Part shown: piece after piece, positions 1 to 1,886 of the stretch
Position numbering within the stretch: the stretch's first letter is position 1
Layout of the letters: every line of letters begins with the position of its first letter
NCBI GenBank assembly: GCA_945897825.1
Contig: CAMDGX010000024.1
Location: forward strand, 1-53,632
DNA from: Asaia bogorensis
Lineage (GTDB): Bacteria > Pseudomonadota > Alphaproteobacteria > Acetobacterales > Acetobacteraceae
Direction of reading: 5' to 3'
Length of the DNA: 53,632 nucleotides
Made by a program: the position numbers and the translations under genes
The notes under the pieces: model-generated
Seen by the model: only the letters and a program-made list of their open reading frames with translations
Database searches by the model: none
What the model was told of the DNA's origin: nothing

Positions 1-170
1 GCGCGCTTGGAATAGCGCAGCGCGCCATCCACCGTGATCTCGAACACGCCGCCGCCGGATTTGCGCAGCGTCACGTTCGCGTCGGGCCGGCGCGAGGCAA
101 TCAGGGTGCGGGCCACACGGGCGCGCGCCTCATAGCCTCACATGCCGCAGTATTCGATCTCGACCTGCAT
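1..170 (-). CDS. Rdx (SelW/SelT/SelH-like) thioredoxin-fold protein with in-frame UGA, probable selenoprotein; C-terminus cut by window edge
   Basis: Reading the minus strand from ATG at 170-168, ten codons end in ...EYCGM and then meet TGA at 140-138. Beyond it the same frame stays open to the window edge and reads GYEARARVARTLIASRR, later GGGVFEITVDG and LRYSKR, which is the body of the Rdx family (CxxU/CxxC near the N-terminus, then a G.FE..V.G....YSK segment). The TGA falls exactly at the second redox position of C-G-M-U, so selenocysteine insertion is the simplest reading; Rdx proteins with Sec at this site are known. An AGAAGGG Shine-Dalgarno lies 8 bases before the ATG. A SECIS-like hairpin follows the UGA. 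The family is inferred to have a thiol/selenol redox role; substrate unknown. The alternative is a sequencing error in a Cys codon. selA/selB/selC are not in the window. Confidence 0.85.
94..131 (-). promoter_or_regulatory. SECIS-like stem-loop downstream of the in-frame UGA
   Basis: Starting 20 bases after the UGA, GTGTG (118-114) can pair with CGCAC (110-106), leaving a three-base apical loop GCC. An outer GAGGC (131-127) can pair with GCCTC (98-94). Bacterial SECIS hairpins sit within the coding region shortly after the UGA and usually carry a G in the first two apical-loop positions; both hold here. The pairing was found by eye, the short stem includes one G-U pair, and the large internal loop is not modelled, so this is a candidate only. 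Confidence 0.45.
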
Positions 171-299
171 GTGTTCATCCCTTCTTGATCGGAAGTCGAT
201 CATATGTGCGCCGCCGCGGCGCCGCCGCAACCCCCCTGAAACTGGACATCCCCGCACCCCGCGACCTAGAACGCCGCATTGGATCGTCAGGAAGCCGAT

Positions 300-1736
300 A
301 TGACCGCCAGCCCCATTGTCCCCGTGATCCTGTCCGGCGGCTCCGGCACGCGCCTGTGGCCGGTGTCGCGCGAGAGCTTCCCCAAGCAGTTCTGGCCGCT
401 GGTCTCCAACCTCAGCATGATCCAGGAAACTGCCGCCCGCGCCCAGCGCCCCGGCTTCGCCGCGCCCATCGTCGTCTGCAACCATGAGCACCGCTTCGTC
501 GTCGCCGAACAGCTCCGCGCCCTCGGCATCCAGGGCGCCCGCATCCTGCTGGAGCCCGTCGGCCGCAACTCGGCGCCGGCCATCCTCGCCGCCGCCCTGG
601 TCGTCGCCGAAACCGACCCCGACGCCGTGCTCTGGATGATGGCCGCCGACGCCGCCATCACCGACGTCGAGGCCCTCCACCAGGCCCTGGCCGCCGCCGC
701 CGCCGCCGCTTCCGCCGGCCATGTCGCCACCTTCGGCATGAAGCCCACCGCCCCCGAAACCGGCTTCGGCTACATCGAGCGCGGCCCCGCCCTGCCCGGG
801 ATCGAAGGCGCCTACGCCGTCGGCCAGTTCCTCGAAAAGCCCGACGCCGCCCGCGCCGCGGAGTTCGTCGCCACCGGCCGGCACCTGTGGAACTCCGGCA
901 TGTTCGTTTTCACCGCCGCCACCCTGATCGCCGAGATGGAAACCCACGCACCGGACGTCGTCGCTGCCGTCCGCACCGCGCTCTCCGAAAGCGTCTCCGA
1001 CCTCGATTTCGTCCGCCTCGACCCGGTGGCCTTCGGCGCCTGTCCCTCCATCAGCCTCGACTACGCGGTCGCCGAACGCACCAGCCGCGCCGCCGTGATC
1101 CCCGCCGACATCGGCTGGTCCGACGTCGGCAGCTGGGGCGCCCTGTGGGACCTCGGCGCCAAGGACGGCGCCGGCAACGTCGCGGCCGCCAGCGGCAGCG
1201 GCGCGGTGCTGTTCGAGGACGCGGCCAACTCCTACGCCCGAACCGACGGCGCGGTCGTCGCCATCCTCGGCCTGGAAGATGTCGTCGTCGTCGCGACGGA
1301 AGACGCCGTGCTCGCCATGCACCGCGACCGCGCGCAGGACGTGAAGAAGGTCGTCGACCGCCTCAAGGCCATGAAGCGCCCGGAGGCCACCACCCATAAC
1401 CGCGTCTATCGCCCCTGGGGCTTCTACGAGAGCCTCATCCAGGGCGAGCGCTTCCAGGTGAAGCGCATCGTGGTGAACCCCGGCCAGAAACTGTCGCTCC
1501 AGAAGCACTTCCACCGCGCCGAACACTGGGTCGTGGTCAACGGCACCGCACTGGTCACCCGCGACGCCGAGGTGCTGATGGTGCGCGAGAACGAGAGCAT
1601 CTACCTCCCGCTCGGCTGCGTGCACCGCCTCGACAACCCGGGCCGCATCCCGCTCACCCTGATCGAGGTCCAATCCGGCAGCTACCTCGGCGAAGACGAT
1701 ATCGTGCGCATCGAGGATACCTACGGGCGGAGCTAG
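300..1736 (+). CDS. manC: mannose-1-phosphate guanylyltransferase / mannose-6-phosphate isomerase (bifunctional)
   Basis: A 478-residue protein of the type II sugar-nucleotide enzyme family. The N-terminal nucleotidyltransferase carries the pyrophosphorylase signature GGSGTRLWP near residues 13-21 and a FLEKP motif. The C-terminal cupin (about residues 365-478, from YRPWGFYESL through the metal-site segment QKHFHRAEHW) is the isomerase domain. It makes GDP-mannose from mannose-1-P and interconverts fructose-6-P and mannose-6-P, feeding exopolysaccharide, O-antigen or GDP-fucose synthesis in the cytosol. The ATG at 300 is preferred over an upstream TTG (279) because AGGAAG (289-294) sits at good spacing. 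It is divergent from the Rdx gene, so the 171-299 gap should hold both promoters. A hairpin repeat follows the stop. Confidence 0.95.
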   Translation: MTASPIVPVILSGGSGTRLWPVSRESFPKQFWPLVSNLSMIQETAARAQRPGFAAPIVVCNHEHRFVVAEQLRALGIQGARILLEPVGRNSAPAILAAALVVAETDPDAVLWMMAADAAITDVEALHQALAAAAAAASAGHVATFGMKPTAPETGFGYIERGPALPGIEGAYAVGQFLEKPDAARAAEFVATGRHLWNSGMFVFTAATLIAEMETHAPDVVAAVRTALSESVSDLDFVRLDPVAFGACPSISLDYAVAERTSRAAVIPADIGWSDVGSWGALWDLGAKDGAGNVAAASGSGAVLFEDAANSYARTDGAVVAILGLEDVVVVATEDAVLAMHRDRAQDVKKVVDRLKAMKRPEATTHNRVYRPWGFYESLIQGERFQVKRIVVNPGQKLSLQKHFHRAEHWVVVNGTALVTRDAEVLMVRENESIYLPLGCVHRLDNPGRIPLTLIEVQSGSYLGEDDIVRIEDTYGRS

Positions 1737-1744
1737 AATAAGCC

Positions 1745-1886
1745 AGGAAAGCAAGCGCGTTCTTTTTTGAAAAAAAGAACCAAAAAACTTTCACCCCTTT
1801 AGCCCGGGCCTCAGGTCACTGGCCCGAGCCTAATGGATAAAGTCTTTTTGCTTCTTTTTCTTCAGAAAAAGAAGGCCTTCCTTCCT
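1745..1886. repeat. quasi-palindromic intergenic element, copy 1 of 5
   Basis: Left unit: AGGAAAGCAAG, then a hairpin with arms GTTCTTTTTT and AAAAAAGAAC (1759-1780), then CAAAAAACTTT. Right unit: AAAGTCTTTTTG, then a hairpin with arms CTTCTTTTTCT and AGAAAAAGAAG (1851-1874), then CCTTCCTTCCT. The right unit is the approximate reverse complement of the left, so the whole element is one large imperfect inverted repeat. The core between them contains a GC stem, CGGGCC (1805-1810) with GGCCCG. It lies just after the manC stop and before the ATPase gene. Confidence 0.9.

What the first reader, a model, noticed from the sequence alone, without database searches (positions are those of the whole stretch)
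1..170. In-frame UGA in an Rdx-family gene: probable selenoprotein
Ten codons end in YCGM, TGA follows at 140-138, and the same frame then encodes a recognisable Rdx body (FEITVDG, LRYSKR). The UGA sits exactly at the CxxU position, and a small hairpin with a G-first apical loop starts 20 bases later. Gene callers will break or miss this gene, leaving a short antisense open frame instead.
Basis: partly seen in the sequence, partly recalled or inferred. Interest (0 to 1): 0.85.

Follow-up and report, generated by a model that had tools for sequence, protein, structure and literature searches.

The report
SelW-like bacterial selenoprotein gene
The UGA codon in this small redox gene is very probably read as selenocysteine, in a bacterium that has all the machinery for it; the protein belongs to an already known selenoprotein family, so this is a sound but ordinary find.

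Summary
On the minus strand ATG is at 170-168, ten codons lead to TGA at 140-138, and the frame runs on through an Rdx body. The gene finishes on another contig of the same genome (C33, 149-base identical overlap): 72 residues with YCGMUGY at the CxxU site. The genome has selA, selB, selC (anticodon TCA) and selD above curated cut-offs. In the same family-level group 35 other genomes have the gene with TGA at this codon; 31 of these 36 have selA, against 0 of 65 with a stop-free Rdx gene. This gene's hairpin alone is not beyond chance; across relatives its position is, clearly in one subgroup and modestly in the query's own, and the loop arginine codon is CGT in 21 of 27 cases against 16 of 158 elsewhere. 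Verdict: a genuine SelW-like (Rdx, PF10262) selenoprotein, a family in print since at least 2006 (PMC1794560). New member of a known kind. A second UGA gene, ResA-like WASWUGC, lies in the same genome.

The parts
1..170 (-). 5' part (56 of 72 codons) of a SelW-like (Rdx family) selenoprotein gene; the rest lies on contig C33 (stop codon ends at base 198 there)
168..170 (-). ATG start codon
   Evidence: ATG at the same place in all 19 relatives aligned
178..183 (-). Shine-Dalgarno-like AAGGGA, 7 bases before the ATG (by eye)
   Evidence: read by eye, not tested
138..140 (-). in-frame TGA read as selenocysteine (Sec11, CxxU)
92..141 (-). predicted bacterial SECIS hairpin (interrupted stem; fold of 63 bases from codon 10: -27.4 kcal/mol)
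115..119 (-). apical loop CGUGU of the SECIS, 18 bases after the UGA, made with the uncommon Arg codon CGT
279..1736 (+). divergent neighbour: mannose-1-phosphate guanylyltransferase/mannose-6-phosphate isomerase (probable start ATG 301); not part of the selenoprotein system but beside it in 7 other genomes of the genus

Best explanation
This is a 72-residue SelW-like selenoprotein of the Rdx (SelT/SelW/SelH) family in an alphaproteobacterium, probably of the Acetobacteraceae (of 17 named contigs that equal contigs of its family-level group in length, 10 are titled Acetobacteraceae). The UGA at codon 11 is decoded as selenocysteine by SelB carrying Sec-tRNA(Sec), guided by a hairpin in the coding sequence just downstream whose apical loop shows GU. 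The product has a Cys8-Sec11 pair at the redox site; by homology it is a small thioredoxin-like thiol/selenol oxidoreductase. Shown here: frame, TGA, sel genes, conservation, co-occurrence, loop codon bias. Inferred: the actual Sec insertion, SelB binding and the redox role; substrate unknown.
For: Profile matches PF10262 47 bits (cut-off 22.6) and TIGR02174 CXXU_selWTH 42.3 bits (cut-off 34.2). selA 577 bits, selB 338 bits with SelB barrel and winged helix, selC 78.9 bits (ARAGORN tRNA-SeC, anticodon tca), selD 286 bits, all over cut-off in the same genome. TGA at the same codon in 35 of 35 further TGA-bearing family genomes fetched and 37 of 38 named loci; the two sets overlap. selA over cut-off in 31 of 36 TGA-Rdx genomes (query included), 98 of 397 overall, 0 of 65 stop-free Rdx genomes; Fisher p 3.3e-16 for TGA-Rdx against the rest of the 397, relatedness not corrected; of the 5 without selA, 4 have selB over cut-off and the fifth is 75% complete. 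Hairpin at fixed offset: 71% of 17 UNY-type sequences with a stem of 4 or more pairs against 14% (max 29%) in the null; 50% of 26 UGY-type against 22% (max 42%). Loop Arg codon CGT 21 of 27 against 16 of 158. dN below dS after the TGA in 10 of 10 comparisons.
Against: The hairpin of this gene alone is no better than synonymous draws (59% of 200 draws reach its score; -11.8 against mean -12.4 kcal/mol), and its apical helix is only 3 unbroken pairs. [quoted passage not shown]). No Rfam SECIS match. No experiment.
Confidence: 0.96

Rival explanations
1. The TGA is a true stop or a decay mutation, and the gene is a pseudogene or a 10-residue fragment.
For: Table 11 reads it as a stop; a 10-codon frame would be the product.
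Against: TGA at this codon in the 35 related genomes fetched and 37 of 38 named loci; protein below the TGA under purifying selection; sel machinery present and tied to the TGA form across 397 genomes.
Confidence: 0.02
2. Sequencing or assembly error at the contig end (the TGA should be TGC or TGT).
For: The codon is about 140 bases from a contig end, where errors gather.
Against: Both overlapping contig ends read TGA (they may rest on the same reads), and independent assemblies of relatives have it.
Confidence: 0.005
3. UGA is read as tryptophan or cysteine by a genome-wide code change rather than as Sec.
For: Any reading of UGA opens the frame.
Against: Of 38 places matched by the selB, selA, selD, PF00384, PF02627 and PF00578 searches in this genome, 36 have no stop inside, one has a TAG and one a TGA, the latter at a known Sec motif; a dedicated tRNA-Sec is present.
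Confidence: 0.005

Closest known systems
SelW-like (SELENOW-like) bacterial selenoproteins, PF10262, CxxU (PMC1794560, PMC2398784, PMC13188914 Table 1; passages read)
   Same: Rdx domain, CxxU, single Sec, UGA followed by an in-frame hairpin, hardly any Cys homologues in the same subfamily (as PMC1794560 says of SelW-like)
   Different: Host group: the 2006 survey gives Alphaproteobacteria one selenoprotein family, with fdhA as the only selenoprotein (passages); here the gene is in an alphaproteobacterial group, probably Acetobacteraceae
NCBIfam NF041051 SelTWH_Campy
   Same: Match over nearly the whole profile, 53.8 bits
   Different: Below its cut-off of 88 bits (the query lacked its first 7 residues), so not filed as that equivalog
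Cys-type Rdx proteins (YCTxC) of genomes in the same family-level group; PDB 2fa8, 2obk, 2oka
   Same: Same Pfam family and CxxC/U site
   Different: Another subfamily: TGC or TGT with a CTxC motif in the 30 of 65 stop-free cases read; selA over cut-off in 0 of 65 of their hosts
Protein C17orf37 (PDB 2ljk; human by recall)
   Same: Best solved-structure match by sequence, E 9.6e-6
   Different: Cys in place of Sec

Membership tests
SelW-like / Rdx (PF10262, TIGR02174) | Profile match above curated cut-off | tested here: met
   47 bits vs 22.6 and 42.3 bits vs 34.2
SelW-like / Rdx (PF10262, TIGR02174) | CxxU (or CxxC) redox motif near the N-terminus | tested here: met
   C8-G-M-U11
SelW-like / Rdx (PF10262, TIGR02174) | Thioredoxin-like fold | not tested
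Bacterial selenoprotein | selA, selB, selC, selD in the genome | tested here: met
Bacterial selenoprotein | UGA conserved in orthologues | tested here: met
   35 of 35 fetched TGA-bearing genomes at the same codon, and 37 of 38 named loci
bSECIS model (PMC13188914, section 5 read) | Apical loop 3-9 nt, G in its first two positions, usually followed by G or U | tested here: met
   CGUGU
bSECIS model (PMC13188914, section 5 read) | 16-37 nt between UGA and apical loop | tested here: met
   18 nt
bSECIS model (PMC13188914, section 5 read) | Minimum free energy -7.5 kcal/mol or lower | tested here: met
   -23.5 kcal/mol for 51 bases from the UGA, though GC-rich coding sequence gives this easily
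bSECIS model (PMC13188914, section 5 read) | Upper stem of 4-16 pairs | tested here: inconclusive
   3 unbroken pairs, then further pairs across mismatches; at the fixed offset 50% of 26 UGY and 71% of 17 UNY representatives have 4 or more
Bacterial selenoprotein | Selenium present in the protein | not testable with these tools
   needs 75Se labelling or mass spectrometry

The most novel reading that the evidence does not exclude
In this lineage the selenocysteine machinery may be kept for SelW-like and ResA-like redox selenoproteins rather than for formate dehydrogenase: no TGA was found inside any of 7 molybdopterin-domain matches of the genome (genome 96.7% complete, and only the stretch matched by the profile was checked), the four sel genes lie on four contigs, each at least 6 kb from either contig end, and tRNA-Sec is not nested in selB as reported for other Alphaproteobacteria (PMC8124441, passages).
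Probability: 0.5. Interest if true: 0.4.

Novelty: new member of a known kind. Interest (0 to 1): 0.3.

Why it matters
It is a well-supported selenoprotein gene that a caller using table 11 would break, and a reminder that the Sec trait in this family-level group (98 of 397 genomes with selA over cut-off) is not only about formate dehydrogenase. The GU loop, often held by an uncommon arginine codon across relatives, gives an extra cue for recognising bacterial SECIS elements in GC-rich coding sequence where folding energy is uninformative.

Tried and rejected
Rfam scan of the gene region for a SECIS family: no match (only tRNA-Sec and two hits far below their gathering scores in L003). Hairpin energy of the single gene against synonymous draws: not significant. 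RNAalifold gave no consensus structure for 36 UGY sequences and a 5-pair hairpin for 19 UNY sequences. Stem position in the 26 UGY representatives: besides centre 20 (50% against 22%, max 42%), centre 17.5 also exceeds the null (54% against 18%, max 38%), and centres 15.5 and 16.5 are frequent but within the null's range (58% against 37%, max 65%; 46% against 30%, max 54%). Pair counts: UNY 80% paired, above all six slides and reached by 0 of 1000 column shuffles, but its counts of double changes and of pair types were reached by 63 and 78 of 1000; UGY 85% paired, above the slides but reached by 267 of 1000 shuffles, so there is no covariation evidence in the query's own group. The CGT test was made after seeing the codon table, so its p-value (8.6e-13) is post hoc, and related sequences were not corrected for beyond clustering. 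selC decoy: a second tRNA-Sec model hit over cut-off at C50 (51.1 bits) is tRNA-Ser by ARAGORN. mnmH/ybbB, another use of selenophosphate: no match at E 0.001. L090 (one of 38 named loci) has its frame broken near the motif and is counted as the one miss; L080 was dropped from the SECIS set because it lies too near its locus start; G165 was left out of both Rdx classes because its copy begins after the CxxU site. The 43 SECIS representatives came from 55 distinct sequences (72 rows) by clustering at 88% identity; the query is not among the 43 under its own name and is stood for by a relative.

Full report
What is there. On the minus strand the window starts a gene at ATG 170-168; ten codons (MQVEIEYCGM) are followed by TGA at 140-138 and the frame then reads GYEARARVARTLIASRRPDANVTLRKSGGGVFEITVDGALRYSKR to the window's edge. 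The window is a whole contig (C24) of a 4.93-Mb, 208-contig genome, 96.7% complete. The same Rdx profile also matches base 1 of contig C33; the two contig ends share 149 identical bases, and reading across them gives a 72-residue protein ending ...AAGAFPSDAEVLASIG. In 7 other genomes of the same genus the gene lies beside the same divergent guanylyltransferase gene on one contig (blastn of the window and C33 pieces against 13 loci, which by equal contig lengths stand for those 7 genomes); this supports the join. An eighth same-genus genome, 68% complete, has no Rdx match.

What family. The C33 piece matches Pfam Rdx with 47 bits (cut-off 22.6) and NCBIfam TIGR02174 CXXU_selWTH with 42.3 (cut-off 34.2); it stays below the cut-off of the narrower NF041051. 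The best solved relatives by sequence are C17orf37 (2ljk) and the Rdx proteins 2fa8, 2obk and 2oka.

Is the machinery present. Yes: selA on C50 (577 bits), selB on C13 (338 bits, with SelB barrel and winged-helix domains), selC on C33 some 17 kb from the gene (78.9 bits; ARAGORN calls tRNA-SeC, anticodon tca) and selD on C19 (286 bits), each over its curated cut-off.

Relatives. Of 397 genomes searched in the same family-level group (the query included), 102 have an Rdx match: 36 (the query included) with one TGA inside, 65 with no stop, and one partial copy that begins after the motif. The 35 other TGA cases were all fetched and have TGA at the CxxU codon; 30 of the 65 stop-free cases were read and have TGC or TGT in a CTxC motif of a different subfamily. 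A scan of named genomes gave 38 loci, from Acetobacteraceae and other Alphaproteobacteria for the most part, and from Marinimicrobia, SAR324, Desulfobulbaceae and a Planctomycetota bin; 37 of 38 have TGA at the site and one (L090) is frame-broken. No intact Cys form of this subfamily was met in these sets, which agrees with the remark in PMC1794560 that SelW-like and a few others have very few or no Cys homologues in Sec-containing organisms (passages read).

Co-occurrence. selA is over cut-off in 98 of 397 genomes: 31 of the 36 with TGA-Rdx, 0 of the 65 with stop-free Rdx (Fisher p 3.3e-16 for TGA-Rdx against all others, relatedness not corrected). The other 67 selA genomes have no TGA-Rdx match, so selA does not imply this gene. 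Of the 5 TGA-Rdx genomes without selA, 4 have selB over cut-off; the fifth is 75% complete.

SECIS. The RNA downstream folds into an interrupted hairpin with loop CGUGU 18 bases after the UGA. That meets the published bacterial model on loop size, G position, spacing and energy, but the upper stem is only 3 unbroken pairs (model read in PMC13188914 section 5). For this gene alone such a hairpin is no more than GC-rich codons give. Across 43 representatives the position does matter: in the 17 sequences with UNY a stem of 4 or more pairs centred at offset 23 occurs in 71% against 14% (max 29%) in synonymous draws; in the 26 with UGY, centred at offset 20, 50% against 22% (max 42%), though there a stem centred at 17.5 is as frequent (54% against 18%, max 38%). 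All 17 UNY and 19 of 26 UGY representatives have a G in the first two loop bases at those offsets. Where the loop codon is arginine it is CGT in 21 of 27 cases but 16 of 158 elsewhere in the same genes, and 7 of 149 in three window genes; this test was chosen after seeing the codon table. Covariation proper is supported only in part in the UNY group and not in the UGY group. A role of the loop G and U in SelB binding is recalled from work on E. coli fdhF; one search for such papers found none in the library.

Selection below the UGA. In 10 of 10 comparisons dN is below dS over the 39 codons after the TGA, for example 0.093 against 0.475 for L056 (short sequences, rough values).

What is known. 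SelW-like is in the 2006 table of bacterial families (first number 10; PMC1794560), heads the Global Ocean Sampling table (427 sequences, PMC2398784 Table 2), and is 'predicted with high confidence' in the 2026 catalogue (PMC13188914 Table 1) (passages read). Two searches joining Acetobacteraceae or Rhodospirillales with selenoprotein terms returned no paper in the held library, so the host group may be unreported, but the kind is known. The 2006 statement that fdhA is the only selenoprotein of Sec-decoding Alphaproteobacteria does not hold for this group: here no TGA was found in 7 molybdopterin-domain matches, while a second UGA gene, with WASWUGC and a 197.6-bit match (below the cut-off of 300) to NF041054 WAxxUGC_long, sits on C4.

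Mechanism. SelA/SelD make Sec-tRNA(Sec), SelB binds it and the downstream hairpin and delivers it at the UGA (as reviewed in PMC13188914, passages); the Cys8-Sec11 pair then serves thiol/selenol redox chemistry. The genes and the conserved signal are shown; insertion, binding and the redox partner are inferred. The finding is correct, and ordinary in kind.

Noticed in passing
L144 (G000:C4:52561-52905, minus): Second probable selenoprotein of the same genome: AhpC/TSA-type protein with WASWUGC, matching NF041054 (ResA-like WAxxUGC) below its cut-off; a UGC-containing TlpA-type selenoprotein is listed in PMC13188914.
   Followed up: partly
G000:C13 (selB), C33 (selC), C50 (selA), C19 (selD): The sel genes lie on four contigs, each at least 6 kb from either end, and selC is not inside selB, unlike the nested arrangement reported in PMC8124441 for other Alphaproteobacteria.
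   Followed up: partly
window 1749-1793: A 45-base stretch after the guanylyltransferase gene matches, at 96-98%, sequence just downstream of the selenoprotein gene in three related genomes (L057, L058, L059): perhaps a dispersed repeat.
   Followed up: no
L090, about 1500-1712: A Marinimicrobia copy of the gene has its frame broken near the CxxU site, by deletion or assembly error.
   Followed up: no
65 genomes of the same family-level group: Genomes with a stop-free Rdx gene (Cys-type in the 30 read) do not have selA over cut-off (0 of 65).
   Followed up: partly
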